Source: Lachnoclostridium sp. An196 (GTDB taxonomy: Bacteria; Bacillota; Clostridia; Lachnospirales; Lachnospiraceae). From it: a stretch of 64,000 nucleotides of DNA. Made by a program: the position numbers and the translations under genes. The notes beneath the pieces are model-generated. The model saw nothing but the letters and a program-made list of their open reading frames with translations. It had not been told where the DNA came from and ran no database searches. The stretch covers positions 124,001-188,000 of the forward strand of contig NZ_NFJZ01000001.1 in the NCBI RefSeq assembly GCF_002160135.1, written 5' to 3'. Positions within the stretch are counted from its first letter, which is position 1. Each line of letters begins with the position of its first letter. This document shows positions 9,697 through 24,012 of this stretch, piece after piece.

Positions 9697-10306
9697 GCAG
9701 TTCGCCGTCGGCCAGGCCCGGCTGCCGGAAAGAGAACCCCGTCCTCTCGGGATGCCATTGCACGCCGAGGACGGGTTTTTTCATATGCTCCACGGCTTCC
9801 GCCACTCCGTCAGGCGCCGTCTGGGTAATCCTCAGATTGCTTCCCGTGCGTCCCAGGCCCTGATGATGGGCACTGTTGACCAGACAGGATGGTCCATAGA
9901 GCCGGTAAAGCGCGGAACCGGGCAGACAGGTCACCGTATGTCGGCGGTCCTCACTGTTCCAGGCATGGAGGGCAGATGAGGGCAGATCCTGCTGAATTGT
10001 GCCGCCGAAATAAACATTCAGAAGCTGCATGCCCCGGCAGATGCCGAGCACCGGACGATTCAGGCGGATGAATGCGTCCAGCAAAGTGAACTGCGCCTGA
10101 TCCAGGGCAGGATCGATGTGGAGCGAGCCCCGGTTCTCTTCTCCGAAGAATGCCGGATCCACATCCCCGCCTCCGGGCAGCAGCAGAGCATCGAACAGAG
10201 ATACAGAGACGGGGGAAAGGCTTACCTGTGTTTCGACGCCCGCCAGGCGAAGCGCATTTTCATAATTTTTCGTAAGATCGGGGATACCCGCTATCAGAAC
10301 ACGCAT
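9668..10306 (-). CDS. Class I glutamine amidotransferase, gamma-glutamyl hydrolase family (C26)
   Basis: 212-residue peptidase C26 / PuuD-like protein that would hydrolyse gamma-glutamyl amide bonds. Catalytic Cys sits in LGICRGMQLLN, and His and Glu in VQWHPE; the glycine-rich LLLPGGGDVDP is typical of the family. Members act on gamma-glutamyl-GABA or related amides; there are no polyamine genes nearby to confirm that. Slightly short for the family (about 230-250 residues), but all catalytic parts are present. Confidence 0.85.
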   Translation of the reverse strand: MRVLIAGIPDLTKNYENALRLAGVETQVSLSPVSVSLFDALLLPGGGDVDPAFFGEENRGSLHIDPALDQAQFTLLDAFIRLNRPVLGICRGMQLLNVYFGGTIQQDLPSSALHAWNSEDRRHTVTCLPGSALYRLYGPSCLVNSAHHQGLGRTGSNLRITQTAPDGVAEAVEHMKKPVLGVQWHPERTGFSFRQPGLADGELLIRYFLTLS

Positions 10307-10399
10307 ATATTTTCATGGACCTACCGGTCTGAAATGTGAACTTAAAGTATTGTATTCCGGCCGCAGAAAAAATGTGCGCCGCCATGGAGGAGGATGGAT

Positions 10400-11440
10400 A
10401 TGCAGATTCAGGAACAGTATATGGAACAGGCCAGAAAACTTCATCAGGCCTGCCCGGTCGCAGATGCGCATCTGGACCTGGCAGGAGAACTGCTGCTCCA
10501 CGTGAATAACGGAGAAAGGGAGGCGCTCCGGCGCCATTATCTGGATGAACTGAGAGAAGGCGGATTCAATCTGGTCGTTTCATCGGTATACCTGGAAAAT
10601 GAATATTTGCCCGAAATGGGACTCAGGAAGGCCATGGATCAGATCGGCGTCCTGCTGGAGGAACTGGATCAGAATGAAGAATTTCTGCTGGTGAAAAATG
10701 TAAGGGATCTGGATCGGGCTCTGGAAGAAGACCGGATCGGAGTGTTGTTATATCTGGAGGGAATGGATTTTGTCGGGACAGATTTTCATTTGCTCCGGAC
10801 ACTGTGGGAAGCCGGAGTAAGAGGCGCTTCCCTGACCTGGAGCAGGAGAAACGCGCTGGCCAGCGGATGCTGCGTGGCGTCAAAAAGAATCCCTGTTCCG
10901 GGAGGCCTGACGGATGAAGGAGTGGAAGCCGTGCGCCGGATGGAAGATCTGGGTATGTTTCTGGACATCAGTCATCTGAACGACGACGGTTTTGAAGATG
11001 TATGCGCAGTGGCGTCAAAGCCGTTCGCGGCGACGCATTCCAACAGCCGGACCATTTACTTCAATTATCGGAATCTGACTGATGAGCAGATGAAAAAACT
11101 GGCGGCGCAGAGAGGCGTGATAGGTCTGAACGGCTGCCGTTTTCTGGTGGGAAAGGGACAGGGAGAGGAAGCTCTGGACTGGCTCTGCAGCCATCTGGAA
11201 TATATGGCGGGACTGGTAGGAGCGGACAAAGTGGGATACGGATTTGACTTCTGCGACGCGTATGACGACGCGAGAGACGGCGGAACGCAGAAAAAAAACC
11301 ACAATGACTGTCTGGTCAGCCACTGCCATGTGCCGGAACTGACCGCGGCGCTCCTGCAGAGGGGCATGTCGGAAGAGGATGTCAAAGGAGTGATAGGAGG
11401 AAACTGGATCCGGTATTTTCGTCAGGTGCTTCCAAAATAA
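10400..11440 (+). CDS. Membrane dipeptidase, peptidase family M19
   Basis: 346-residue zinc dipeptidase of the renal dipeptidase family. Metal ligands fit VADAHLDL (HxD), LEGMDF (bridging Glu), ATHSNSR (His), and GYGFDFCD later in the barrel. No signal peptide is visible, so it is probably cytoplasmic. ATG at 10400 is preferred to ATG 10394 because GGAGGAGG ends directly before 10394. It precedes the tyrS T-box but has its own end; the tyrS promoter starts 11 bp after its stop. Confidence 0.85.
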   Translation: MQIQEQYMEQARKLHQACPVADAHLDLAGELLLHVNNGEREALRRHYLDELREGGFNLVVSSVYLENEYLPEMGLRKAMDQIGVLLEELDQNEEFLLVKNVRDLDRALEEDRIGVLLYLEGMDFVGTDFHLLRTLWEAGVRGASLTWSRRNALASGCCVASKRIPVPGGLTDEGVEAVRRMEDLGMFLDISHLNDDGFEDVCAVASKPFAATHSNSRTIYFNYRNLTDEQMKKLAAQRGVIGLNGCRFLVGKGQGEEALDWLCSHLEYMAGLVGADKVGYGFDFCDAYDDARDGGTQKKNHNDCLVSHCHVPELTAALLQRGMSEEDVKGVIGGNWIRYFRQVLPK

Positions 11441-11451
11441 TCAGAAAAGTC

Positions 11452-11480
11452 TTGACATTCAGATTTGTTTTCTTTACAAT
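11452..11480 (+). promoter_or_regulatory. tyrS promoter
   Basis: TTGACA (11452-11457), 17-bp spacer, TACAAT (11475-11480). It lies directly before the T-box leader, giving a start near 11487. Confidence 0.8.
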
Positions 11481-11486
11481 GGCTCT

Positions 11487-11765
11487 ATGACCTACAGGCG
11501 ATGAAAAGAATAAGTAGTGATTCCCGGAATCCACAGAAAGCAGCCGGTCGATGAGAGGCGCGGAGAAAAGGAATCATGAATACCTCTTGGAGCTTCCCTC
11601 TGAAACCGCAGCGCGCGTGCGGCAAGTAGGAGGAGACGGACGCACCCGTTATCGTGCAGGGTATCATGGCGTACCTGGTAAGGCGGCAGGCGTGAGCGTG
11701 CCGTGAAAAAAGGTGGTAACACGGGATCTGGCTCTCGTCCTTTTAAGAGGATGGGAGCTTTTTTG
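11487..11765 (+). promoter_or_regulatory. T-box leader of tyrS (tRNA-Tyr sensing)
   Basis: Leader of about 280 nt with T-box hallmarks: a specifier region with GAATACC, where UAC at 11581-11583 is the likely Tyr codon; the conserved T-box AAAGGTGGTAACACGGG near 11709-11725; and a terminator with arms GCTCTCGTCCT and AGGATGGGAGC followed by TTTTTT at about 11759-11764. Uncharged tRNA-Tyr would bind the specifier and the T-box bulge, favouring the antiterminator and tyrS expression. The specifier agrees with the downstream gene. Confidence 0.92.
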
Positions 11766-11819
11766 TGATTGCGTGGAAGCCCCGGCCAGCAGTTTTTAGA
11801 AAGAAAAGGAGCAGAGAAG

Positions 11820-13040
11820 ATGCAGGTATATGACGAACTGGTAGCCCGGGGCCTGATCGCCCAGGTGACCAACGAAGAAGAGATCCGGAAAATGGTAAAC
11901 GAAGGGAAAGCCACTTTCTATATCGGGTTTGATCCTACGGCGGACAGCCTTCATGTAGGACATTTTATGGCGCTCTGTCTGATGAAGCGTCTGCAGATGG
12001 CGGGAAACAAACCGATTGCGCTGATCGGAGGCGGTACCGCGATGGTGGGAGATCCTTCCGGCAGAAGCGATCTGCGGCAGATGATGACGGTGGAGACGAT
12101 TCAGCACAACTGCGAGTGTTTCAAAAAGCAGATGAGCAAATTCATTGATTTCTCCGACGGCAAAGCGCTGATGGTCAACAATGCGGACTGGCTGATGAAT
12201 CTGAATTATATTGAAATGCTCAGGGATGTAGGAGTGCACTTCAGCGTGAACCGGATGCTTACCCATGAGTGCTATAAGAAACGTATGGAACGCGGACTTA
12301 CGTTCCTGGAATTCAACTATATGATCATGCAGAGCTATGATTTCCTGATGCTGTATGAAAAATACGGCTGCAATATGCAGTTCGGCGGGGACGACCAGTG
12401 GGCGAACATGCTGGGCGGTACGGAGCTGATCCGCAGGAAGCTGGGCAAAGACGCGCACGCCATGACGATCACGCTGCTTCTGAATTCGGAAGGGAGCAAG
12501 ATGGGCAAGACGGCCAAGGGCGCCGTGTGGCTGGACCCGGAAAAGACGAGTCCGTATGATTTTTACCAGTACTGGAGAAATGTGGACGACGCGGATGTGA
12601 TCAAGTGCCTGCGCATGCTCACCTTTCTTCCGCTGGAGCAGATCGACGAAATGTCTCACTGGGAAGGCAGCCAGCTGAACCAGGCAAAAGAGATCCTGGC
12701 TTATGAACTGACCAAGCTGGTGCACAGCGAAGAAGAAGCGAAGAAAGCTCAGGACAGCGCGCGCGCTCTGTTCGGAAGCGGAGACGCGGCAGAGATGCCG
12801 ACCGCTGAACTTTCTATGGATGATCTCCAGGACGGAAAGGCGGATATCCTGACGATCGTACACAAATCCGGTCTCTGCGCGTCCCGTTCGGAGGCCCGCA
12901 GAAATGTGCAGCAGGGCGGCGTGAGCGTGGACGGGGAGAAAGTGACAGACATTGCAGCAAGTTACACGCTGGATCAGCTGAAAGCAGGTATTGTGGTAAA
13001 ACGCGGAAAGAAAAATTTCAAGAAAGTGGTTGTAAAATAG
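11820..13040 (+). CDS. tyrS: Tyrosyl-tRNA synthetase
   Basis: 407-residue class I aminoacyl-tRNA synthetase that charges tRNA-Tyr. HIGH-type motif is [10 protein letters not shown]; the KMSKS-type loop is [10 protein letters not shown]; the last 70 residues are an S4 RNA-binding domain ([18 protein letters not shown]). ATG 11820 is preferred to upstream in-frame TTG 11769 because AAAAGGAGCAGAG precedes it. rlmCD begins at the next base after the stop, so both are probably under the T-box. Confidence 0.97.
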
Positions 13041-14198
13041 ATGCCTTCTGAAAAAATACCGCCATGTCCTCTCGCAAAGAAATGCGGCGGATGCGATTAT
13101 CAGGGGATGCCCTATGAACAGCAGCTTCGCGAAAAGGAAAAGCTGGTGAAGAAGCTGCTGGGCAACATGGGCGAGGTGCGCCCGATCCTGGGAGCGGAAA
13201 CGCCGTACCATTACCGGAATAAAGTTCATGCAGTATTTTCCAGAAAGAGAAACGGCGAAGTTATCTCCGGTATTTATCAGGAAGGAACGCACCGGGTTGT
13301 CCCTGTGAATGCCTGTCAGATTGAAAATGAAAAAGCGGACGAGATCATAGTCACGATCCGGGGACTGCTGAAATCTTTCCGGATTCGGGTTTATGACGAG
13401 GATACGGATTTTGGGCTGCTGCGCCATGTAATGGTGCGCACTGCCGCGGCTACCGGACAGATTATGGTGGTTCTGGTAGTGCGCACACCGGTGTTCCCGT
13501 CCAAGAATAATTTTGTGAAAGCTCTGCGCGCCGTACATCCGGAGATCACTACCGTGGTGCTGAACGTCAATGAAAGGCGGACGAGTATGGTGCTTGGTGA
13601 GCGCAATATACCGATCTACGGGAAAGGGTATATCGAGGATGTGCTCTGCGGCTGCAGTTTCCGCATTTCGCCGACTTCATTTTACCAGGTGAACGCCGCG
13701 CAGACGGAAAGACTGTATAAGACGGCCATGACGCTGGCGAGACTGAACAAGAGAGACCGGGTTGTGGACGCCTATTGCGGGATCGGGACCATCGGCATGG
13801 TGGCGGCGAAGACCGCCAGAGAAGTTATCGGAGTGGAGCTGAACAAAGAGGCAGTCCGGGACGCCGCCCGGAATGCCGTGCGCAATCATATGGACAATAT
13901 CCGTTTTGTGCAGGGCGACGCGGGCATGTTCCTGGAAGGCATGGCGGACCGGGAAGAGCCGGTGGATGTGGTATTCATGGATCCGCCCCGGAGCGGGAGC
14001 AGCGAAGCGTTTTTAAAATCGCTGCTGGTCCTGAAGCCGAAAAAGATCATCTATATCTCCTGTAATCCGGAGACCCAGGCCAGGGATCTGAAAATGCTGA
14101 AAGGAGATTACCGGGTGGAAACGATCCAGCCGGTGGATATGTTTCCTTTTTGCGGGCATGTGGAGACGATAGTGTTGCTACAAAGAGAAACCTTGTAG
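13041..14198 (+). CDS. rlmD: 23S rRNA (uracil-C5)-methyltransferase RlmCD type
   Basis: 385-residue SAM-dependent RNA m5U methyltransferase of the TrmA/RumA family. An N-terminal [4Fe-4S] motif is seen at Cys9, Cys15, Cys18 (CPLAKKCGGC) with a probable fourth Cys in VNACQIE; SAM motif VVDAYCGIGTIG; FMDPPRSG; catalytic Cys in YISCNPET. It lacks the N-terminal TRAM domain common in longer relatives. Start ATG abuts the tyrS stop. The gene's 3' end (HVETIVLLQ) is a familiar integration target for conjugative elements of Firmicutes, and a decayed mobile island follows at once. Confidence 0.9.
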   Translation: MPSEKIPPCPLAKKCGGCDYQGMPYEQQLREKEKLVKKLLGNMGEVRPILGAETPYHYRNKVHAVFSRKRNGEVISGIYQEGTHRVVPVNACQIENEKADEIIVTIRGLLKSFRIRVYDEDTDFGLLRHVMVRTAAATGQIMVVLVVRTPVFPSKNNFVKALRAVHPEITTVVLNVNERRTSMVLGERNIPIYGKGYIEDVLCGCSFRISPTSFYQVNAAQTERLYKTAMTLARLNKRDRVVDAYCGIGTIGMVAAKTAREVIGVELNKEAVRDAARNAVRNHMDNIRFVQGDAGMFLEGMADREEPVDVVFMDPPRSGSSEAFLKSLLVLKPKKIIYISCNPETQARDLKMLKGDYRVETIQPVDMFPFCGHVETIVLLQRETL

Positions 14199-14342
14199 AA
14201 ATCCTTAGATTTAGGCACTTTTCCCGTCATGTGGTGTTTGACGCAGAGGGTGATAAATACCGTAATAAGCGTATTGAGGACTATATCACCGTTTCGGTAG
14301 TCATTGATATGGAGTGTGGGAACACAAAAAATTGAATAGTTG

Positions 14343-14426
14343 ACGAGAAAGGACATCGTGCAAGCGGTGTCCTTTTCTCATAGGCCCAGCCGCAGATTTT
14401 GAAAAAGTCTGCGGCTTTTTTTGCGC
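14343..14426 (+). terminator. Two tandem stem-loops before the island genes
   Basis: First stem: GAGAAAGGACA.. with TGTCCTTTTCTC at about 14346-14380. Second: AGCCGCAGA with TCTGCGGCT at about 14388-14418, followed by TTTTTTT, a good terminator. They separate rlmCD from the element's first gene. Confidence 0.65.
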
Positions 14427-14451
14427 CCAAAACCAGAAAGGAGGCGATGCC

Positions 14452-14685
14452 ATGTATTTTACATCCGGCAGCGATCGCGCCTTTAAAAGCTTCATGCAAG
14501 GCAAGCCCGGCTTCGACCACTACGACAGCGGCGACGCCGGAGCGTCGGAGGGTTGCGGCGATTGCCGTTTCTACCGTCCCGACTGGAAGTATCAGTTTTG
14601 CGTGTATTCAGAGTGTCCCTACCAGCCGGGCAAGCTCACCGCTTATGACGTGGTTCTATTCCAAGTGAAAGGAGTTGACGACGAG
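14452..14685 (+). CDS. Small Cys-rich element protein, in frame with next gene
   Basis: About 78 codons from ATG 14452 (AAAGGAGGCGATGCC upstream). It carries a zinc-type pattern GCGDCRFY .. CVYSECPYQ. Similar small ORFs precede replication initiator genes in Tn1549-like elements (recalled, not searched). There is no stop before the next gene: the frame runs on into the initiator at 14686, so either the stop was lost or the two are made as one protein in addition to internal initiation at 14686. Function unknown. Confidence 0.5.
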
Positions 14686-15306
14686 ATGGCAGTTTTTCGT
14701 GTGGAGAAAAACCGGGGCTACGCGGTGATGTCCAACCATCACCTGCGGAACAAAGACCTGTCCCTGAAAGCCAAGGGCCTGCTTTCGCAAATGCTGTCCC
14801 TGCCGGAAGATTGGGACTATACGCTGAAAGGTTTGTCCCTTATCAACCGGGAAAGCATCGACGCCATACGGACGGCGGTGTGGGAACTGGAAAAGGCCGG
14901 GTATATCACCCGCCAGCAGAACCGGGACGGCAAGGGCAAGATGGCCGACATGGTTTATACCATCTACGAACAGCCGCGACTCCGGCCAGAGGCAGCGGAG
15001 AAAGAACAGCTGGGATTGGAAACCCGGTGTTGGAAAATCCAACATCGGATAATCCAACGTCGGAAAACCTGGTATCGGGAAATCCAATGCAAATAAATAA
15101 AGATATATCAAGTAAAGAAAAATCAATTACTGATCCATCAAATACCCATTCCATTCCTATCCATTCCCCCACCCCCTGCGGAGGGCAAGGCGGCACAGCA
15201 ACCGGAACGGAAGCGAAAGGAAATGACCCGCCAGACCCTTGCCAAGCTGGACACCATGACCGACGCTGACTTTGCGGCGTTGTTTTTATATAGCTTTAAA
15301 GGCTAA
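14686..15306 (+). pseudogene. Replication-initiator-like HTH protein, double frameshift
   Basis: From ATG 14686 (GAAAGGAG upstream) the reading frame encodes an N-terminal winged-helix region starting MAVFRVEKNRGYAVMSNHHL, typical of RepA_N / phage-replisome-organiser-like proteins in conjugative elements. After codons for GLET near 15022 the frame is lost; shifting by one base restores repeats of the type ENPTSDNPTSEN and KDISSKEK. A second shift in the C run near 15166-15176 restores a last segment MTRQTLAKLDTMTDADF ending at 15306. Two single-base losses in C runs explain both breaks. The 3' end overlaps the kinase gene on the other strand. Confidence 0.7.
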
Positions 15307-16452
15307 AATCATGTCACGAATATTTTGAAATCTTTTTGTTTTATCCGGGTTCAACCCCCTCTCAACAAAAGTTCGTAAATTCGGATTGGAAATTTTTTCT
15401 GTATTAGTTTTGCCTGTCATCACAAAATAAATAACTCTGGTAAGGGCATAAGTTTCGTGAACGATGCCATAAGTATCAAACCCCTCTACGACAAGTGCAG
15501 GATCGTTAAAATATCCCTTGAACTCCGTATTAACTGTTGTTAATGTACTATCCGGAATTTTTACAAGCCCAAAATCTGAAAGTTTAACCACAAGGGTATC
15601 GTCATATTCCTTTATTAAAATATTTTTAGGGCTTATATCACGATGCAGATGTCCTTTTGAATGAAGATAATCAAAAGCGCGTAATATTTGTTGAGCAATA
15701 CCTTTTCGTTGTATAATTGTCAGTTTCGAGTTATGAGCAGTAACATATTCATCCAGTGTATAATCCATATATTCCATAATATATTCATTTTTGTCTGGAT
15801 TGTAGCAATAAACCTCAAGTATGTATGGAGAAGATAGTTCATTCATTACATCAAATTCTCGTTTGAAACGAGCGATCTCTTTATTGGTAAGTTCCTTTTT
15901 TGCACGTTTCAAAATGAAAGGGCGATTATAAAATGTGTCCTTATATTTGTAAACATTGGCATAAGAACCGCTTCCAATCAGTTTCAACTCAAATGTAAAG
16001 TCTTGTTGTTTATGTGAAATTGTTATGCTGTTAAGTGGCATAAAAATGGGAAGTGTATAGTATAAGTCCACTTTTGCCATATGGGGTGGTAATGAACTTC
16101 CGCCACTGGAACTAAGAAAATCTCGACAACGTGTAAGTAAATCTAAATAGTATGAGTCAATTTGAAATGCTAAAGGAGTTCCTTTTAGTGAACTAAATAA
16201 GCTAAATATTATATCAATTCTCTTAATTAAATCTCTGCTTGGTTCTGCCCAAAAGTGAGCTTCATATTCCCCTGTTGGCAACCTTTCATTCATTGTTCTA
16301 AAAAGCCCGATCAAATCATGATGTAAGGTCATAAGGATTTCTCGAAGTTTTTGATTCTTAAATGGTTTATATAAATCGGAGTATTCCGCATTTATTTGAC
16401 TACATGCTAATAATTCTCTATACTGTGATTCAATATAATTTTCAATATTCAT
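15286..16452 (-). CDS. Hanks-type serine/threonine protein kinase, accessory
   Basis: 388 residues from ATG 16452. Residues 1-150 form a mostly helical region with no recognised domain. Residues about 155-388 are a complete eukaryotic-like kinase: glycine loop GSGSYANVY (160-168), Lys182 in FILKR, HRDISPKN (His270), DFG at 293-295. No transmembrane or PASTA segment, so it is not the usual cell-wall PknB. Base composition is far more AT-rich than the flanks, a sign of transfer. ATG 16452 is chosen over 16515 because a promoter lies between them and GGTGAAACTCAC precedes 16452. It sits in a mobile island beside Fic, so an anti-phage or regulatory cargo role is plausible (inference). Confidence 0.85.
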   Translation of the reverse strand: MNIENYIESQYRELLACSQINAEYSDLYKPFKNQKLREILMTLHHDLIGLFRTMNERLPTGEYEAHFWAEPSRDLIKRIDIIFSLFSSLKGTPLAFQIDSYYLDLLTRCRDFLSSSGGSSLPPHMAKVDLYYTLPIFMPLNSITISHKQQDFTFELKLIGSGSYANVYKYKDTFYNRPFILKRAKKELTNKEIARFKREFDVMNELSSPYILEVYCYNPDKNEYIMEYMDYTLDEYVTAHNSKLTIIQRKGIAQQILRAFDYLHSKGHLHRDISPKNILIKEYDDTLVVKLSDFGLVKIPDSTLTTVNTEFKGYFNDPALVVEGFDTYGIVHETYALTRVIYFVMTGKTNTEKISNPNLRTFVERGLNPDKTKRFQNIRDMILAFKAI

Positions 16453-16486
16453 GTGAGTTTCACCGCTTCCAACCTTGTTTTGCAGT

Positions 16487-16515
16487 ATTATATCATGCAA
16501 CTTAATAATCGACAA
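16487..16515 (-). promoter_or_regulatory. Promoter of the Ser/Thr kinase gene
   Basis: On the minus strand TTGTCG (16515-16510), 17-bp spacer, TATAAT (16492-16487). The expected start near 16480 lies downstream of the first in-frame ATG (16515) and so supports the start at 16452. Confidence 0.65.
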
Positions 16516-16738
16516 TTACTCCAAAACGCCGGGCGCGGGGGTTGTATAGCCTCTGCGTCCGGCGCTGTTTTGTCTTTATGACTGCTCCATCGGAGAATTC
16601 GTCAGGGCTTCCGCCAAAGAAAACTAAAAATGGGTATAAGAAAAGCACCTACCTTGTGATAGATGCTTAATCTTATTATCATACAAATTTCCTTAAACAC
16701 TCTCTATATTTAAGGGAATATAGGTTTTATTGAGGGAA

Positions 16739-17785
16739 TCACTTCAATCTGTAATAGCAGATATTCTTTCCCTTGCCTTCTCGTTTCAGTTCACCGGATG
16801 CTACCAGTTTACGTAGCGCCCCCTCTACGGAACTGACGCTCAGAGAAGGACAAAGTTCACGGATATCCTGCTTCGTAAAACGCCCGATTTTATTCATTGA
16901 AGCTCGGCGTACCGTTTCCAGTGCCGACAGTTTTGTTTCTACCAGAGCAAAGCGGTCTTCGAAGTCATGGTATGCAGCAAGGATAGTGCCCAGCAGATAT
17001 TTGATAAACGGAATAGGGTCATCCGTTCCTTCGCGCCATCCGATCTGCGTTTGACCGAGAGCATCGTAATACAAATCTTTGTTCTTTGCGATTTTCGCCT
17101 CCAGGGAGATGTATTTTCCCACATAGAATCCATTTCTATAGAGCAGAAGCGTGGTCAACAGGCGGCTCATTCTGCCGTTGCCGTCATTAAACGGATGGAT
17201 GCACAGGAAATCGTGAATGAAAATCGGAATAACAATCAGCGGTTCAACTTCCATATTGCCAATGACACGATTATATTCCTCGCAGATTCTGTCCAGTGCC
17301 TCCGGTGTTTCGTAGGGTGCGAGAGGCGTAAAGAGGGTTTCTACATGACCATCCGGGTAGGTGGCGCTGATATAGTTCTGCACACTCTTGGTTCTGCCCG
17401 CCATAGGGTTATTCATATGACTGTAGAGAATTTTATGAAGCTGCAGGATATAGTTCTGCGTGATTGGAATAGCATCAAAACCTTCATGGATGATATTCAG
17501 CACATCACGATAACCTGCGATTTCCTGTTCATCGCGGTTCCTGGGCATTGTTTTTTCCTCAACAAGCTGCTTGATTCGTGTATTCGTGGTCACAATGCCT
17601 TCTATGGCATTGGAGGCCTCAGTACTCTGTATCTTGGCAATTTCAACGAGTTTTTCCAGTTCCTGCGGGCACTGTTTCAGATACAGTTCCTGTTTGCCTG
17701 CTTCTTTATAGATTGCTGCAATCAGGCCGAGAATATCAGAATCCCACTTTTGGTTTTTTATCTCAGAATAATTAAATGTTCGCAT
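16739..17785 (-). CDS. Fic family protein with C-terminal winged helix
   Basis: 348 residues. The Fic core motif is complete, HPFNDGNGRMSR at about 197-208, so AMP or other nucleotide transfer to a target hydroxyl is expected. An N-terminal inhibitory helix of class II type is seen as STEASNAIEG (about 54-63), so activity is probably self-restrained. The C-terminal 60 residues (FTKQDIRELCPSLSVSSVEG) look like a winged helix, suggesting DNA binding. The start has GGAGGTGAGG just upstream. Inverted repeats with AAGGGAA cores lie directly before the gene. Part of the rlmCD island; no antitoxin gene is adjacent. Confidence 0.88.
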   Translation of the reverse strand: MRTFNYSEIKNQKWDSDILGLIAAIYKEAGKQELYLKQCPQELEKLVEIAKIQSTEASNAIEGIVTTNTRIKQLVEEKTMPRNRDEQEIAGYRDVLNIIHEGFDAIPITQNYILQLHKILYSHMNNPMAGRTKSVQNYISATYPDGHVETLFTPLAPYETPEALDRICEEYNRVIGNMEVEPLIVIPIFIHDFLCIHPFNDGNGRMSRLLTTLLLYRNGFYVGKYISLEAKIAKNKDLYYDALGQTQIGWREGTDDPIPFIKYLLGTILAAYHDFEDRFALVETKLSALETVRRASMNKIGRFTKQDIRELCPSLSVSSVEGALRKLVASGELKREGKGKNICYYRLK

Positions 17786-17800
17786 AACCTCACCTCCGAG

Positions 17801-17870
17801 ATTTTCCCTTAAAATATATCACAAAATAAGGGAAAATTCAATCGGGTAAGGGGAAGTTCCCTTATTAGTA
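17801..17870. promoter_or_regulatory. Inverted repeats with AAGGGAA cores before fic
   Basis: An 11-bp perfect inverted repeat: ATTTTCCCTTA at 17801-17811 and TAAGGGAAAAT at 17827-17837, 15 bp apart. A second pair: TAAGGGGAA at 17847-17855 and TTCCCTTA at 17857-17864. Related AAGGGAA words lie near the fic 3' end (about 16712 and 16733). They look like operators, possibly for the Fic protein's own winged helix (inference). Confidence 0.5.
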
Positions 17871-17913
17871 TTGCACTATTAAGGAAAAATATTCTGGCAT
17901 TATATAAACAAAA

Positions 17914-18006
17914 GGCCCCGGCTGTCTCAAGGCGACGGACGACAGTTTCTGTGAGGAACATCAGAAGCTGGAAAACCAGCAGTACGAAAAGTACGGCCGG
18001 GACTGA
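17914..18006 (+). pseudogene. Fragment of HNH endonuclease N-terminal region
   Basis: 30 codons, open from the left with no start, reading GPGCLKATDDSFCEEHQ and ending EKYGRD before TGA. The PGC..CEEH pattern is the N-terminal zinc segment of small phage-type HNH endonucleases. The HNH catalytic part is absent. It marks a deletion or rearrangement inside the island. Confidence 0.5.
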
Positions 18007-18080
18007 TATCTGCAATCTGATTCTGACAGGAGTTGTGAACACAGATAAATCTTGACAGTTGACTGACGCAGCTGGCTCTG

Positions 18081-18530
18081 CTATTTTTTGCTGTTCCACG
18101 TATGCGCTAAAATGTCTTTTAATACTAACATAGCGTCTAAATCATTGTAGCCATACTGCATTTTCAAACTATCAAGCAGGTTTTGTATTTTAGTTGCATA
18201 ATCACTAATTGCTACTGTTTTTTGATAGGTTGTAAGAACTGGGTACTTCTTTCCCCAAACACTTGTCCAATCAATTTTCTGCTGTTTTTCATCACTAATA
18301 TTTTCGATAGCTTCTTCAATTTCTTTTTGGTCAATATCAAAATCTATCAATTCATCCAGCGTGAGATGATAAAGTTGAGATAATTTTTTTGATTGGCGTA
18401 TGTCTGGAAGTGTTTCATCAAGCTCCCATTTTGAAATTGTTTGTCTGCTTACGCCCAGCTTTTCGGCAACAGCTTCCTGTGATAATCCGCTCTTTTTACG
18501 GGCGTTATAAAGACCGCTTCCTAAACTCAT
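18081..18530 (-). CDS. XRE-family transcriptional regulator
   Basis: 149 residues from ATG 18530. N-terminal Cro/C1-type HTH at about residues 3-60 with SQEAVAEKLGVSRQTISKWE. The C-terminal 90 residues are helical and unassigned. ATG 18530 is chosen over upstream in-frame ATGs at 18548 and 18539 because AAGGAGATGAAAATT precedes it. A TATAAT lies about 30 bp upstream. It is the last intact gene of the island; target unknown. Confidence 0.85.
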   Translation of the reverse strand: MSLGSGLYNARKKSGLSQEAVAEKLGVSRQTISKWELDETLPDIRQSKKLSQLYHLTLDELIDFDIDQKEIEEAIENISDEKQQKIDWTSVWGKKYPVLTTYQKTVAISDYATKIQNLLDSLKMQYGYNDLDAMLVLKDILAHTWNSKK

Positions 18531-18641
18531 AATTTTCATCTCCTTCATTTTTTAAATAATTATAACCGGAAGATGAAACTAAATCTAGCAAAGTAAGCTT
18601 TCATTTTTGCCCGTTTTCTTAACATTTTCCAGGAATAGTAG

Positions 18642-19304
18642 GGGCTGCTGTCTATCGCAGGGCATGATGTACGTATCCTGCGGTCCGGTATGGCCGGGAA
18701 TCTGGGCTTTGAGGTCCAGGGCGAGGTGGAAGACATGCTGGACGTCTATAAAAAGCTGATCGAAGTAGGCAACAAATACGGCATCCGGGAAATCGGCTTC
18801 CACTGCTACTGCATGAATCACAACGAAGGCGGCTATCCGCAGGCTTCCGAGCACTTTATGAGCGCGTCCATGACGGATAAAGGTTTCCAGGAATGGCAGC
18901 GCAAAACCTTTGAAAACGAGTATAACTCTGCCTTTGACGGCGGAGGATTTGAAGGCCAGCTGGAATCGTTTGATTTCTGCGGAACAGCCTATGACGAGTT
19001 CAATATCGAACACTATTATTTTAATCCTATTGAGCTGGGACTGGGATATTGCATTAACTGGAATCATGACTTCCGCGGCAAACAGGCGCTGATTGACTAT
19101 AAGGCGTCCGGCCATACCCGCAATATAGTGACTCTCGAGTGAAATGTGGAGGATATTATCGATGTGTACCGTTCCCAGTGGGATCTTGACGAGGAACCGT
19201 ATTTCCCGATTGACGATATGTCCTATACGCCGCCCAAATATACGAAGACGCTGAAGGGCGCGCTGCAAACGCATCCGTGCTGCTGTGGCGAAATTCCCCT
19301 ATAA
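18642..19304 (+). pseudogene. Aminomethyltransferase (GcvT / folate-dependent demethylase family) remnant
   Basis: The frame begins mid-protein (no start, stop codon at 18639) with IAGHDVRILRSGMAGNLGFE and runs through a recognisable T-protein-like fold (ELGLGYCINWNHDFRGKQAL). At 19140-19142 TGA stands where a Trp (TGG) fits LEWNVEDIIDVYRSQ, then the same frame continues to 19304. So it lacks its N-terminal part and has an internal nonsense mutation. Relatives move one-carbon units from glycine or O-methyl aromatics to tetrahydrofolate. The 5' loss coincides with the right edge of the mobile island. Confidence 0.75.
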
Positions 19305-19391
19305 TAAACATCATGAGCGGACCGGATACTCTTTGTAAAATATCCGGGTAAAAATACTGTCCAGGCATGATAAACGATGAAATATGGGTAT

Positions 19392-19420
19392 TTTACAGGC
19401 AGAAGACGTGGTAGTATACT
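19392..19420 (+). promoter_or_regulatory. Promoter of the CMD-domain gene
   Basis: TTTACA (19392-19397), 17-bp spacer, TATACT (19415-19420), then AGGAGG at 19442 and the ATG at 19457. Confidence 0.65.
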
Positions 19421-19456
19421 AAAACCAGTAAATGAGAACATCAGGAGGTATTTAGT

Positions 19457-20149
19457 ATGAACTATCGTGAGACAGACCCGGAATTTGCAGAACGGTTTGA
19501 ACACTTTGCATTTGAAGAAGTCGTGAATGAGGAAGGGCAGCAGCTGGATGACGTGACCCGCAATATGGCGATCCTGGCTGCTCTTTTAGGGTGCCAGGGA
19601 GTGGATGAATTCCGTCTGGCGCTTCCGCGCGCGCTGGATCAGGGCTTGACCCCGGTGATGGTAAAAGAGATTGTCTACCAGGCTGTTGATTATCTGGGAA
19701 TCGGCAGGGTGCTTCCGTTCCTGAACGCGACGAACGAGATCCTGACAGAACGGGGCGTGAAGCTGCCGCTGGAAGGACAGACGACCACTACCATGGAGAA
19801 CCGGCTGGAAAAAGGCGCCCAGGCGCAGGTAGACATTTTTGGCGACGTCATGAAAGACGCATGGAAAAAAGGCCATATCAACCGCTGGCTTGCGGCGAAC
19901 TGTTTCGGAGATTATTATACCAGGACCGGGCTCAGCTATGCGCAGAGGGAGATGATTACTTTCTGCTTCCTGGCCGCGCAGGGCGGATGCGAGCCGCAGC
20001 TTACCTCCCATGCGGGAGGAAATATGAAGGTCGGGAACGATAAGGATTTCCTTATCCGCGTCGTGTCCCAGTGTCTGCCGTACATAGGATATCCCCGCAG
20101 TCTGAATGCCATCGCCTGCGTCAATAAAGCGGCGGAAACACAAAAATAA
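19457..20149 (+). CDS. Carboxymuconolactone decarboxylase-family protein, two CMD repeats
   Basis: 230 residues with two CMD-type helical repeats: LDDVTRNMAILAALLGCQG in the first half and LSYAQREMITFCFLAAQGG in the second. Neither repeat has the CxxC redox pair of AhpD-type members, so a decarboxylase- or hydratase-like role or an unknown one is more likely than peroxide reduction. Start ATG 19457 is supported by AGGAGGTATTTAGT. It lies downstream of the aminomethyltransferase pseudogene and may once have shared a pathway with it (weak inference). A strong terminator follows. Confidence 0.8.
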   Translation: MNYRETDPEFAERFEHFAFEEVVNEEGQQLDDVTRNMAILAALLGCQGVDEFRLALPRALDQGLTPVMVKEIVYQAVDYLGIGRVLPFLNATNEILTERGVKLPLEGQTTTTMENRLEKGAQAQVDIFGDVMKDAWKKGHINRWLAANCFGDYYTRTGLSYAQREMITFCFLAAQGGCEPQLTSHAGGNMKVGNDKDFLIRVVSQCLPYIGYPRSLNAIACVNKAAETQK

Positions 20150-20165
20150 AATAACATGAAAAAAG

Positions 20166-20215
20166 CCCTCTGCGGAATACTATGGATATAGATTAGTAGA
20201 CGCAGAGGGATTTTT
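20166..20215 (+). terminator. Terminator after the CMD-domain gene
   Basis: CCCTCTGCG (20166-20174) pairs with CGCAGAGGG (20201-20209), followed by ATTTTT. Confidence 0.8.
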
Positions 20216-20249
20216 ATGCTTTTTTAACACATTATTAAGGATCCTCCGG

Positions 20250-20278
20250 TTGCGCTTCCAAAGGTTTCAGGCTATAAT
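20250..20278 (+). promoter_or_regulatory. Promoter of the DUF368 gene
   Basis: TTGCGC (20250-20255), 17-bp spacer, TATAAT (20273-20278). Its place argues for the gene start at 20319 rather than the upstream in-frame start at 20250. Confidence 0.7.
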
Positions 20279-20318
20279 AGGCGTGTTATTTCTGCATAAA
20301 ATGAAGAAAGGAATCTAT

Positions 20319-21161
20319 ATGAGAGAAAATAAAACAGGAACTTTGATGTTTGCTCTCCGTGTCCTGCAGGGCGTGCTGCTGGGAGTGGGAGCGGTACTGC
20401 CGGGGATTTCGGGCGGCGTGCTGTGTGTGGCGTTTGGAATTTATAAACCGGTCATGGAGGTTCTGTCTGATCCGTTTGGAAAGTTTAAAACCCATCTTCC
20501 TCTGCTGGTGCCGATTCTGGCAGGAGCTGCGGCAGGTTTCCTCGGAGTGGCCAGGATACTGTCCTTTTTCCTGGAAGCATATCCGAACCAGTCAGTCTGT
20601 CTCTTTGTGGGACTGATCGCAGGGATGCTTCCGTCTTTGTTCCGTGAAGCGGGAGAGAAAGGAAAACCGAAAGGGTGTATGACGGCGCTTCTGGCGTGTT
20701 TCGCAGGGATTGTTTTTCTGCTGGCGTCTTTGGAGATTTTTTCCGTGTCGATTGTACCCAGTAAAAGATGGTACCTTTTCTGCGGATTTTGCATGGCGCT
20801 CAGCGTTATCGTGCCGGGGATGAGTTTTTCCACGCTTCTGATGCCGATGGGACTGTACGCTCCCTTTGTGGACGGACTGGGGAGTCTGAATCTGACAATC
20901 CTGATCCCTGCGGGTATCGGGGCTGTGCTCACAGTGGTCGCTCTGGCAAAGTTTGTTGATACTATGATGAAGAAGCATTATGCGCTGGTGTTTCATGGGA
21001 TCATCGGTATTGTGATCGGCGCTACGGTTATGACGGTGCCGTTTTCCGGTTTCGCCGGCTCTTTTGCCGCAGCTGCGGTGAATACCGTGTGCATCGCGGC
21101 GGGATTTGCGGCCGCGCTGGCGCTGGATCATTTTAACAGTAAAATTTCCACGCAGGGCTGA
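20319..21161 (+). CDS. DUF368 polytopic membrane protein
   Basis: 281 residues, strongly hydrophobic, about eight or nine membrane helices. The signature LPGISGGVLCVAFGIY near the N-terminus and VIVPGMSFSTLLMPMGLY in the middle form the two related halves typical of DUF368, a family linked to undecaprenyl-phosphate translocation. Here such a role in lipid carrier recycling is inference from the family. Start ATG 20319 has AAAGGAA about six bases upstream. Confidence 0.85.
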   Translation: MRENKTGTLMFALRVLQGVLLGVGAVLPGISGGVLCVAFGIYKPVMEVLSDPFGKFKTHLPLLVPILAGAAAGFLGVARILSFFLEAYPNQSVCLFVGLIAGMLPSLFREAGEKGKPKGCMTALLACFAGIVFLLASLEIFSVSIVPSKRWYLFCGFCMALSVIVPGMSFSTLLMPMGLYAPFVDGLGSLNLTILIPAGIGAVLTVVALAKFVDTMMKKHYALVFHGIIGIVIGATVMTVPFSGFAGSFAAAAVNTVCIAAGFAAALALDHFNSKISTQG

Positions 21162-21195
21162 TGCCCTGCGTGTTGTGCAAAGGAGGAAATATTTT

Positions 21196-21444
21196 ATGGA
21201 AGAGAACGGACGTCTGTCCAGGGTCCTCGCGTTTGTAAAAGAGCGGGGATGGCGTTATACAATGTCCGAAGAGGACGGATGCGGCAGCATCGATTTTGAA
21301 TACCGCGGAGTTCCATACCATATCTGGGAGTTTTATGACGGCGAGTGGGGAGTGGAGACCAATCTGCGGCACGGAGGCCGTCAGGAGGAGATTCTGGGGG
21401 ATTATGAGTCGGAAATGCTGGAAATTATGAAAGACTGGCATTAA
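21196..21444 (+). CDS. Small acidic protein, unknown function
   Basis: 82 residues, no membrane segment. ATG 21196 has AAAGGAGGAAATATTTT upstream. The sequence alternates acidic and aromatic residues (YHIWEFYDGEWGVETN) and could be a small beta-rich fold. I do not recognise a family. It lies between DUF368 and the HD-GYP regulator in the same direction with short gaps, so it may be co-transcribed. Confidence 0.7.
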   Translation: MEENGRLSRVLAFVKERGWRYTMSEEDGCGSIDFEYRGVPYHIWEFYDGEWGVETNLRHGGRQEEILGDYESEMLEIMKDWH

Positions 21445-21473
21445 AGACAAGACCCAGAACAGGAGGCAGGAAA

Positions 21474-22550
21474 GTGAATAAAACAGAGATGATGTTGATC
21501 GTAGATGACAATGAGATCAACCGGATGCTTCTGGACAATATTTTTTCCGGGGACTACCGGATCCTGGAGGCAGAGAACGGACAGGAGGCCATGGAGAAGC
21601 TGATCAGGTATAAAGACAGTATCTGCGCGGTCTTGCTGGATGTGGTCATGCCGGTTATGGACGGGATGGAAGTTCTGGAAAAATTAAAGATGATGGGGTG
21701 GACAGAGTGGATGCCTGTATTTCTCATTACGGCGGAGACAGAAGGCAGTACGCTTCAGCGGGCCTATTCTCTGGGAGTTATGGATGTGATCCATAAGCCG
21801 GTGGTTCCGTATATAGTAGAAAGACGAATCAATTCTGTCATCGAATTGTTCCAGGCAAGAAAGAGACTGAAACATAAAGTAGAAGAACAGCAGACAGAGA
21901 TACTGGCTCAGGCAAGAAGAATTATTGATCTGAATGTGGGGCTCATCGAGGCTCTGGCTACCACCATTGAATTCCGGAGCGGCGAGTCCGGCTCCCATGT
22001 ACGCCGGATTCATGATATTACCAGGCATTTGCTGCTCTATACAGAACTGGGACAGGGACTGTCGGAAGAAACTGTAGAGCAGATAGCGCTGGCATCAATC
22101 ATGCATGATGTGGGAAAAGTGGCTATACCGGACGCGATTTTGAATAAGCCGGGGAAACTGACGCCGGAGGAGTATGAGATTATGAAGACGCATACTCTGA
22201 GAGGGGCGGAGCTCCTGGAGCGGATCCCGCAGCTGAAGGATCAGGAAGCGTATCAATATGCTTACGATATAGCCCGTCATCATCATGAAAGATGGGACGG
22301 GAACGGTTATCCGGACGGACTGAAAGGAGATGAGAATACTATATGGGCCCAGATCGTCTCCATCGCGGATGTGTACGACGCGCTGGTAAGCCGCAGAGTA
22401 TACAAAGACGCCTATGGCGCGGATACCGCCGTCCGGATGATACAAAACGGAGAATGCGGAGCCTTTAATCCGCTTCTTTTAGAACAGTTTATGAGTGTGG
22501 AAAAAGATCTTCGCGCTTTGTATGTAAAGGACGTGACAGAAAATGGATAA
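21474..22550 (+). CDS. Response regulator with HD-GYP domain
   Basis: 358 residues. N-terminal receiver with IVDDNEIN, phospho-acceptor Asp in LLDVVMPVMDG, and KP near residue 108; a coiled linker; then HD-GYP with HDVGK and RHHHERWDGNGYPDGL. HD-GYP domains hydrolyse cyclic di-GMP, so phosphorylation would probably tune c-di-GMP turnover. GTG start at 21474 follows AGGAGGCAGGAAA. The 3' end overlaps the alpha-amylase start by 8 bp. The sensor kinase is not adjacent; the hybrid kinase at the left edge is a distant candidate only. Confidence 0.92.
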   Translation: MNKTEMMLIVDDNEINRMLLDNIFSGDYRILEAENGQEAMEKLIRYKDSICAVLLDVVMPVMDGMEVLEKLKMMGWTEWMPVFLITAETEGSTLQRAYSLGVMDVIHKPVVPYIVERRINSVIELFQARKRLKHKVEEQQTEILAQARRIIDLNVGLIEALATTIEFRSGESGSHVRRIHDITRHLLLYTELGQGLSEETVEQIALASIMHDVGKVAIPDAILNKPGKLTPEEYEIMKTHTLRGAELLERIPQLKDQEAYQYAYDIARHHHERWDGNGYPDGLKGDENTIWAQIVSIADVYDALVSRRVYKDAYGADTAVRMIQNGECGAFNPLLLEQFMSVEKDLRALYVKDVTENG

Positions 22551-24012
22551 TGTGACGATGATGCAGTATTTTGAATGGTATCTGCCGGAAAACGGTACGC
22601 TCTGGAAAAGATGCTCAACCCGGGCGGAAAGCCTGAAGAAAGCGGGAATCAACATGGTATGGCTGCCTCCGGCTTACAAGGGCGCCGCAGGCTCCGGAAG
22701 TGTCGGTTACGATGTATACGACGTCTATGACTTGGGTGAATTTGACCAGAAGGGATCCGCCCGAACAAAATATGGGACTAAGGACGAGTACCTGGAAGCT
22801 GTTCGGGCGCTGCAGAATCAGGGAATTCAGGTCTTAGCCGACATTGTCCTGAATCATCGGATGGGAGCGGACGGGACGGAGACGGTGATGGCGGAGGAAT
22901 GCCTGAATACAGACCGGAATAAAGACATAGGAGAAGAACGGCAGATCACAGCCTGGACCCGCTTTGATTTCCCGGGCAGGGCAGGAAAATATTCCGCTTT
23001 TCGGTGGAACGCTTCCCATTTCAGCGGAACAGACTGGGATGAAGGCGCGAAACGCAAAGGAATCTTTCGCTTTGCGGGAAAAAACTGGGAACGCAAGATT
23101 GACGATGAGAACGGCAATTATGATTACCTTATGGGAGCAGACCTGGATACGGACCAGCCGGAAGTGGTGAAGGAGACAGCAGACTGGGGAAAATGGTATC
23201 TGGATACGGTACATATGGATGGTTTTCGGCTGGACGCCGTAAAACACATCGGTTTTGATTTTTACCGGGAATGGCTGAAATGTATGCGCGCGCATGCGGG
23301 GAGAGACTTGTTTGCCGTGGGGGAATACTGGTCCAGGGATCTGAAAAAGCTGACGGAATATCTGGAAGTCCTGGAGCACAGTCTCAGTCTGTTCGATGTG
23401 CCGCTGCATTTTCATTTCCTGGAAGCCGCTGCTTCCAATGGAAATTACGATATGAGCAGGTTGTATGAGAATACGCTGACCGGAACGGATCCTGAACATG
23501 CAGTGACTTTTGTGGACAATCATGATACGCAGCCGGGGCAGGCTCTGTATTCTTTCATCCCGGCATGGTTTAAGCCGGCTGCCTATGCGCTGATCCTGCT
23601 GCGTGCCGCGGGAACGCCCTGTGTGTTTTACGGAGACTATTACGGCATCGCTCGTGACGGTATAGGAGCGGTTCCCGGACTGGCGCGCTTTATAAAGATA
23701 CGGGAGAAATATGCTTACGGAAAAGAGAACCTGTATTTCGACCATCCTTCGGTTGTGGGCTTTACCAGGGAAGGAGATACGGACTATCCGGACTCCGGTA
23801 TTGCCGTGCTGCTTACAGACAGTACGGCCGGAAAGAAACGCATGTATATGGGAATACAGCATGCGGGAAAACACATGGCTGACGCGGCGGGCAGAATCTC
23901 CGGAACTGTGACGGTGGGAACGGACGGCTGGGCAGAATTCTGTGTGGGAGACGGTTCTGTGTCTGTATGGGTGTTTGAAAACGCATGGAAGACATTATGT
24001 ATAGAAACATAG
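22543..24012 (+). CDS. Alpha-amylase, GH13 family, cytoplasmic type
   Basis: 489 residues, no signal peptide, so it acts on intracellular alpha-1,4-glucans such as glycogen or imported maltodextrins. GH13 boxes are complete: ADIVLNHRMG, nucleophile Asp in GFRLDAVKH, acid/base Glu in AVGEYW, and FVDNHDT. A small C-terminal beta domain follows the barrel. ATG 22543 lies inside the HD-GYP gene, so translation is probably coupled. Followed by a convergent XRE gene after 34 bp. Confidence 0.93.
   Translation: MDNVTMMQYFEWYLPENGTLWKRCSTRAESLKKAGINMVWLPPAYKGAAGSGSVGYDVYDVYDLGEFDQKGSARTKYGTKDEYLEAVRALQNQGIQVLADIVLNHRMGADGTETVMAEECLNTDRNKDIGEERQITAWTRFDFPGRAGKYSAFRWNASHFSGTDWDEGAKRKGIFRFAGKNWERKIDDENGNYDYLMGADLDTDQPEVVKETADWGKWYLDTVHMDGFRLDAVKHIGFDFYREWLKCMRAHAGRDLFAVGEYWSRDLKKLTEYLEVLEHSLSLFDVPLHFHFLEAAASNGNYDMSRLYENTLTGTDPEHAVTFVDNHDTQPGQALYSFIPAWFKPAAYALILLRAAGTPCVFYGDYYGIARDGIGAVPGLARFIKIREKYAYGKENLYFDHPSVVGFTREGDTDYPDSGIAVLLTDSTAGKKRMYMGIQHAGKHMADAAGRISGTVTVGTDGWAEFCVGDGSVSVWVFENAWKTLCIET

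What the first reader, a model, noticed from the sequence alone, without database searches (positions are those of the whole stretch)
15286..17785. Ser/Thr kinase and Fic protein as cargo of a decayed rlmCD island
A soluble Hanks-type kinase with an unassigned 150-residue N-terminal region and strongly AT-rich DNA sits next to an autoinhibited Fic enzyme inside an element remnant. Both modify proteins post-translationally and both occur in phage-defence or toxin systems. The kinase lacks PASTA and membrane segments, so it is not the housekeeping kinase. Retention of intact frames while the element around them decays suggests selection.
Basis: partly seen in the sequence, partly recalled or inferred. 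Interest (0 to 1): 0.5.

Follow-up and report, generated by a model that had tools for sequence, protein, structure and literature searches.

The report
Mobile kinase gene from phage-defence islands
The finding is a small bacterial protein kinase gene that hops between unrelated bacteria on many kinds of mobile DNA, often beside known virus-defence genes, and that swaps its front end with a domain known from other virus-defence proteins, so it is probably a one-gene alarm that shuts down infected cells; its neighbour, a Fic enzyme, is there by chance.

Summary
In detail: an intact soluble Hanks-type kinase (true start 16452, 388 aa, GC 33%) sits beside an intact Fic gene in a decayed element at the 3' end of rlmD. 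The paired reading fails: the Fic gene moves separately and is adjacent to the kinase only here (0 of 42 other kinase loci within 5 kb). The kinase is the interesting part. It belongs to a rare, horizontally spread family (about 1% of sampled Bacillota genomes) found in several phyla, on ICEs, plasmids, prophages, Mu-like transposons and an integron array. At least 12 of 39 loci have a named defence system within 2.5 kb, often in operon-like contact. Its N-terminal 150 residues form a confidently modelled domain with no Pfam, PHROG or clear PDB match; in related kinases this domain is replaced at least twice, once by the abortive-infection domain AbiJ_NTD3. Best explanation: a stand-alone abortive-infection kinase, N-domain as infection sensor, kinase as toxin. 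The architecture (Abi N-domain plus kinase) was predicted in 2013; the sensor domain, the swap on one kinase scaffold, and a kinase-specific hairpin-bracketed cassette appear new. No function was tested.

The parts
15286..16452 (-). Soluble Ser/Thr kinase gene (388 aa): N-domain residues 1-150, Hanks kinase residues about 155-388
16003..16452 (-). N-terminal domain, mostly helical, proposed infection sensor; no Pfam, PHROG or clear PDB match
16487..16515 (-). Sigma-70-like promoter of the kinase (TTGTCG-17-TATAAT, TG before the -10); the -10 part is conserved in L015, L038, L017, L004
16523..16563 (-). 37-nt hairpin with T tail at the upstream edge of the kinase cassette; relatives carry a second direct copy just after the stop codon, lost here
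14452..15270 (+). Decayed ICE/plasmid-type replication-initiator gene (frameshifted here, intact in L049)
13041..14198 (+). rlmD-type 23S rRNA methyltransferase gene whose 3' end is the presumed integration site
16739..17785 (-). Fic protein gene; neighbour by chance, not part of the kinase system
18081..18548 (-). HTH_3 regulator gene travelling with the Fic gene (segment 17396-18706 is 99% identical in G006)

Best explanation
The kinase is a stand-alone, mobile anti-phage gene of the abortive-infection kind. The N-terminal domain (1-150) recognises a product or consequence of infection; this releases or dimerises the C-terminal Hanks kinase, which autophosphorylates its activation loop (Thr305/Thr309 are candidates) and phosphorylates host proteins, halting growth before phage release. 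Different N-domains on the same kinase scaffold give different triggers. Shown here by computation: intact catalytic residues, purifying selection, wide horizontal spread, frequent defence-gene neighbours, interchange of the N-domain with AbiJ_NTD3. Inferred: sensing, activation route, toxicity, defence itself. The Fic gene is an unrelated passenger.
For: Catalytic residues and activation-loop Thr305 and Thr309 invariant in 28 of 28. dN/dS 0.050-0.069 against four relatives; no difference in 480 bp against L049 while the adjacent replication gene is frameshifted. Named defence systems within 2.5 kb in at least 12 of 39 loci: L018 (type II restriction, methylase, Vsr; kinase 11 bp after Vsr), L019, L026 (retron-type RT), L027 (Hachiman HamB, E=0, 196 bp), L030 and L036 (ISP restriction, E=0), L032 (type III Mod/Res, 13 bp), L050 (type IV, 7 bp), L052 (AbiLi/AbiLii, 62 bp), L054, L057, L058 (PD-T7-5). 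L113: kinase between genes that read as HsdM/HsdS and HsdR (by eye). N-domain of L050, L051, L052 is Pfam AbiJ_NTD3, E 1.8e-55, 7.1e-49, 3.7e-50; L057 and L113 are the same type. Kinase tree: at least 2, best 3, N-domain changes; L047 (a third, unassigned N-domain) nests with type-I L020 and L021. Vehicles: ICE relaxase neighbours (by eye), 95 plasmid records, prophage-like contigs, Mu-like genes (by eye), integron array. Precedent: PMC3710099 passages report AbiJ-NTD1 and NTD3 fused to kinases and propose that the N-domain meets viral targets and the C-terminal enzyme is a toxin.
Against: No phage test exists for this family in anything I read. The far control (genes 5.5 kb or more away) is not clean of defence genes: 109 PADLOC families among 121 proteins against 238 among 114 near ones, and the number of distinct proteins behind those counts is not given. 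PADLOC kinase labels are unspecific (PMC11514479 passages: a protein called PD-T4-6 has a PknB-like kinase domain followed by repeat modules, on my reading the housekeeping kinase), so the kinase's own PADLOC hits prove nothing. In the window itself no recognised defence system is adjacent. Several loci (L023, L024, L033, L035, plasmids L064, L066) showed me no known defence neighbour. Mobile cargo could also serve element maintenance.
Confidence: 0.68

Rival explanations
1. The kinase regulates its mobile element (excision, transfer, prophage quiescence) by phosphorylating an element or host regulator, as the KKP kinases silence Pf prophage; defence neighbours only reflect shared cargo sites.
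For: It rides on ICEs, plasmids, prophages and Mu-like elements. KKP precedent: passages of PMC11341870.
Against: The same kinase serves unrelated elements with no shared element gene beside it, sits directly behind or inside restriction operons and in an integron array. No phosphatase gene adjoins it in the window.
Confidence: 0.14
2. It is an addiction or toxin gene that stabilises elements, with an antitoxin not yet recognised, and any anti-phage effect is secondary.
For: Solitary kinase on mobile DNA; purifying selection.
Against: No conserved small partner gene: no neighbour cluster is shared beyond related elements.
Confidence: 0.1
3. Kinase and Fic form a two-gene protein-modification defence or toxin system.
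For: Adjacent and on one strand here, 223 bp between the ORFs as listed.
Against: Fic within 5 kb in 0 of 42 other kinase loci; Fic in 8 of 17 genus genomes, kinase in 1 of 17; different GC, and a promoter-like site and hairpin between them.
Confidence: 0.03
4. A non-functional leftover of a dead element, kept by chance.
For: The surrounding element is decayed.
Against: Identical kinase stretch in L049 and dN/dS near 0.06 in the clade. Because the L049 copy may be very recent, selection on the window copy itself is not proven.
Confidence: 0.05

Closest known systems
AbiJ-NTD / protein-kinase fusions (Anantharaman et al. 2013, PMC3710099, passages read)
   Same: Short N-terminal domain joined to a C-terminal protein kinase, linked to restriction and Abi genes; AbiJ_NTD3 is found on the sister kinases here.
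   Different: The window's N-domain is not AbiJ_NTD3 (no Pfam match, hhalign probability 0.5%) and does not resemble the presumed AbiJ-NTD1 of Ymh proteins.
Stk2 of staphylococci (Depardieu 2016; only the reference entry seen, content recalled)
   Same: Single eukaryotic-like kinase linked to abortive infection.
   Different: PADLOC Stk2 model matches only the kinase region (residues 176-407 to model 128-352 of 500), not its other parts.
PD-T4-6 (E. coli) as modelled in PADLOC
   Same: Kinase-domain similarity.
   Different: Only the kinase domain matches, with the kinase near the start of the models; ours has a 150-residue domain in front.
MAD6 of MADS and PglW of BREX
   Same: Kinase domains in multigene defence systems; the best single PADLOC score is mad6, 130 bits.
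   Different: NCBIfam 79 bits against cut-off 460 (MAD6) and 45.8 against 990 (PglW); no partner genes recognised.
KKP kinase-kinase-phosphatase module (PMC11341870, passages read)
   Same: Phage-inhibiting Ser/Thr kinases on prophages.
   Different: KKP needs two kinases and a phosphatase, with extra domains after the kinase; here one kinase, domain in front, no phosphatase in the window element.

Membership tests
Abi N-domain + kinase architecture (2013 proposal) | A small N-terminal domain fused to a catalytic kinase domain | tested here: met
Abi N-domain + kinase architecture (2013 proposal) | The N-domain of the window protein is AbiJ_NTD3 (PF18860) | tested here: not met
   no Pfam hit for the window N-domain at E 10 and hhalign 0.5%; met for L050, L051, L052
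Abi N-domain + kinase architecture (2013 proposal) | The N-domain is AbiJ-NTD1 | tested here: inconclusive
   no similarity to 7 Ymh proteins; that L117 and L118 carry AbiJ-NTD1 is recalled, not tested
Abi N-domain + kinase architecture (2013 proposal) | Association of the family with defence genes | tested here: met
   at least 12 of 39 loci; the window locus itself has none
Abi N-domain + kinase architecture (2013 proposal) | Protects against phage by growth arrest or death | not testable with these tools
   needs an experiment
Stk2 | Full-length match to the Stk2 model | tested here: not met
   kinase region only
PASTA (PknB/PrkC) housekeeping kinase | NCBIfam NF033483 cut-off 450 bits, PASTA repeats, membrane segment | tested here: not met
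   87.1 bits; no PASTA, no hydrophobic segment
MADS MAD6 | NCBIfam cut-off 460 bits | tested here: not met
   79.1 bits
KKP | Two kinases plus phosphatase in an operon | tested here: not met
   ORF list 10000-24000 read; Pfam on 8 proteins shows one kinase and no phosphatase
SoFic (the Fic gene) | NCBIfam ProtAdlyltaseSoFic cut-off 550 bits | tested here: not met
   58.4 bits; PADLOC SoFic model 127 bits over residues 18-289
Integron gene cassette (L031 copy only) | Flanking attC-like sites in direct order and an IntI-type integrase nearby | tested here: met
   92-nt repeats on both sides, GGCGTTA after successive genes, tyrosine recombinase with an internal stop; attC and IntI assignments made by eye from recall

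The most novel reading that the evidence does not exclude
The window's N-domain is an undescribed infection-sensing domain, functionally exchangeable with AbiJ_NTD3 and a third unassigned domain on one conserved kinase scaffold, so that bacteria re-target a single-protein suicide kinase by swapping its front end; and in the window's clade this gene moves as a discrete cassette bracketed by a kinase-specific hairpin.
Probability: 0.5. Interest if true: 0.68.

Novelty: new variant of a known kind. Interest (0 to 1): 0.52.

Why it matters
Protein phosphorylation as a bacterial antiviral output rests on few cases. A small, single-gene, host-crossing kinase whose sensor is naturally exchanged offers a direct test: move N-domains between kinases and ask whether the phage trigger moves with them. 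It also shows that generic PADLOC kinase calls hide at least one distinct defence-associated family.

Tried and rejected
Fic as partner: rejected. Known fold for the N-domain: Foldseek on the domain alone gave no PDB match at E 0.001 (best 0.39) and none in BFVD (best 0.64); VIA-align best Z 5.3 among unrelated helical proteins, which shows neither a new nor a known fold. Profile search of PDB sequences gave a best E of 8.6e-5 over 33 residues to a designed lectin (MITSUBA-1), judged chance. In Pfam, 9 of 27 N-domain members gave a weak match to Leu_Phe_trans (best E 0.00066, at a limit of 10), the window member none; judged chance. The full-length model matched kinases. Right-hand attachment repeat: not found. 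Flanking repeats as a general property of the family: beyond the window's clade only L031 clearly exceeded the shuffles (31 loci named in the script). Hairpin elsewhere: 2 of 250 genomes of the family, both kinase carriers; none in viral contigs; a hairpin-and-promoter stretch of L015 gave no plasmid match. Phage records: 4 weak kinase-domain matches only. Prior description: ten paper searches found no paper on this kinase family; the library lacks most subscription papers, so this is weak. In the tree 2 loci were dropped because my G-loop pattern missed them (L114, L066) and 27 were listed to be skipped as duplicates or partial; one duplicate pair (L071, L116) was left in by mistake, hence 43 rows, 42 different.

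Full report
What is there. The window lies in an unnamed 3.25 Mb genome. Between an rlmD-type gene (13041-14198) and a carboxymuconolactone-decarboxylase-like gene (19457-20149) lies a low-GC stretch with a frameshifted replication-initiator gene, a kinase, a Fic protein, an HTH regulator and the tail of a demethylase-like gene. The kinase reading frame is 15286-16515, but close homologues begin at the ATG at 16452. Kinase GC is 32.9%, Fic 45.6%, window 50.5%.

The element. In relative G007 the rlmD gene ends differently and is followed by unrelated genes, with none of the island in the 8 kb read, so something entered at its 3' end in the window's lineage. The sister genome G006 matches the window at 91% up to 14239 and then its contig stops; another contig starts at 17396 and is 99% identical to 18706, while the flank beyond 19337 is 88%. 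The Fic-HTH segment therefore moved between the two species recently. Locus L049 (Candidatus Hungatella pullicola) matches 14403-15770 at 97%: its replication gene is intact, and its 480 bp of kinase show no difference from the window. No right-hand repeat was found.

The kinase travels alone. Of 61 relatives searched, 2 hold a full-length copy (own and G031); all 61 hold some other kinase match. N-domain searches found 4 of 398 genomes of the phylum, all with frames of 391-409 aa; kinase-domain searches at E 1e-60 found 5 of 391 in the class and 4 of 398 in the phylum, own included each time. A genome-contig scan returned 41 loci, from Bacillota, Gammaproteobacteria, Oligoflexia, Melainabacteria and Akkermansia by record title; tblastn found 95 plasmid records (62 Campylobacter, 26 Lactococcus; 86 covering at least 80% of the query, all under 60% identical) and the viral contigs gave 7 loci. 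No neighbour is shared across the family; the shared clusters belong to related elements. Among 42 other loci a Fic gene lies within 5 kb in none.

Defence neighbourhood. I took 39 loci as non-redundant by eye. Individual scans of selected neighbours (not all 180 near ORFs were scanned singly) found a named system within 2.5 kb in at least 12 of 39: L018, L019, L026, L027, L030, L032, L036, L050, L052, L054, L057, L058. Candidate defence families lie beside L029, L041 (and, by its sequence, near-copy L056) and L053; a caspase-like gene by L022 and a HEPN_Swt1 protein by L028. In L018, L032, L036, L050 and L052 the kinase follows the defence gene by 7-62 bp on the same strand. PADLOC families at E 1e-10: 238 for 114 near proteins, 109 for 121 far ones; family counts overlap, so this is a rough contrast. 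Other loci showed no known defence gene.

Domain exchange. Six of 43 rows in the kinase tree lack the window-type N-domain: L047, L050, L051, L052, L057, L113. Five of these share one N-domain (44-72% identity among themselves), which in L050, L051 and L052 is Pfam AbiJ_NTD3 (E 1.8e-55, 7.1e-49, 3.7e-50). L047 has a third domain without a Pfam match. The tree needs 3 changes of N-domain, at least 2 on well-supported branches; L047 groups with the window-type L020 (98/74) and L021 (96/95), inside the clade that includes the window (98/97). Host taxonomy is scattered on the same tree. So the kinase stayed while its front end was replaced, once by a domain that PMC3710099 (passages) reports on AbiJ, nucleases, TIR domains and kinases and interprets as a module that meets viral targets.

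Structure and activity. The model of the whole protein has mean pLDDT 88; that of the N-domain alone 87, pTM 0.82, mostly helical, with no clear structural match. Motifs around Asn55-Thr60, His66-Arg73 and Ser116-Ser119 are largely invariant. The kinase is of the RD type; the segment that usually holds the APE motif (recalled) reads FKGYFNDP in nearly all 28, and Thr305 and Thr309 never vary. That these are autophosphorylation sites is inference.

Cassette edge. Homology between the window and L015, L016, L004 and L038 covers only 15283 to about 16565. At the upstream edge stands a 37-nt hairpin; in L015, L016, L004, L038 and L017 (5 of 5, of which L015, L016 and L004 are near-copies) a second direct copy follows the stop codon within 10 bp. 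The two copies of L038 differ at one of 41 positions. The window keeps only the upstream copy. In 250 genomes of the family the pattern occurs only in the two that carry this kinase, 1 and 2 copies. It may be only a pair of terminators left by a duplication, or the scar of cassette insertion; the data do not decide.

Integron. In L031 (Gammaproteobacteria) the kinase lies between two 92-nt repeats, 88% identical, in an array of same-strand genes with GGCGTTA after successive genes and a damaged tyrosine recombinase that reads like an integron integrase. L034 has the same core 39 bp before its kinase.

Judgement. The case for a stand-alone defence kinase rests on three lines: neighbourhood, vehicles, and exchange of its N-domain with a known Abi domain. 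None is a functional test. The general idea (Abi N-domain plus kinase toxin) is in print since 2013; this N-domain and its exchange on one scaffold I did not find in ten paper searches of an incomplete library. Papers read: passages only of PMC3710099, PMC11514479, PMC11341870, PMC13092281, PMC12322248 and PMC9519451; abstract and outline of PMC13373217.

Noticed in passing
window 16527-16563; L015 9892 and 11172; L038 9894 and 11175; L017 1877 and 3158; L004 1457 and 2738: A 36-37-nt hairpin with T tail brackets the kinase in direct orientation in the relatives and was found nowhere else in 250 family genomes; possibly a self-contained gene cassette.
   Followed up: partly
L031 6600-15135: The kinase homologue is a cassette of what reads as an integron array in a gammaproteobacterial MAG; the integrase reading frame has an internal stop.
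   Followed up: partly
L057-L062: Prophage-like contigs carry divergent copies of the kinase in an accessory position; in L058 next to a PD-T7-5-type gene.
   Followed up: partly
L063, L128 (Campylobacter plasmids): 62 Campylobacter plasmid records, including one named pTet, carry a kinase about 44% identical, beside an AAA ATPase and a HicB-like gene in the two regions viewed.
   Followed up: no
window 17396-18706 versus L099: Fic-HTH segment is 99% identical between two species whose flanks are 88-91% identical: a recent transfer.
   Followed up: partly
window 18690-19142: Fragment of a vanillate/syringate O-demethylase-like (GcvT-fold) gene, replaced by about 43 nt in G006.
   Followed up: no
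L039, L042, L043, L044, L046, L048 (and related L037): In Gastranaerophilales-type genomes the kinase sits beside genes that read as Mu-like transposition genes, with a conserved small gene directly before it in six of them.
   Followed up: no
literature, PMC11514479: PADLOC's PD-T4-6 label was given there to a protein with a PknB-like kinase domain and repeat modules, so that label is unspecific.
   Followed up: no
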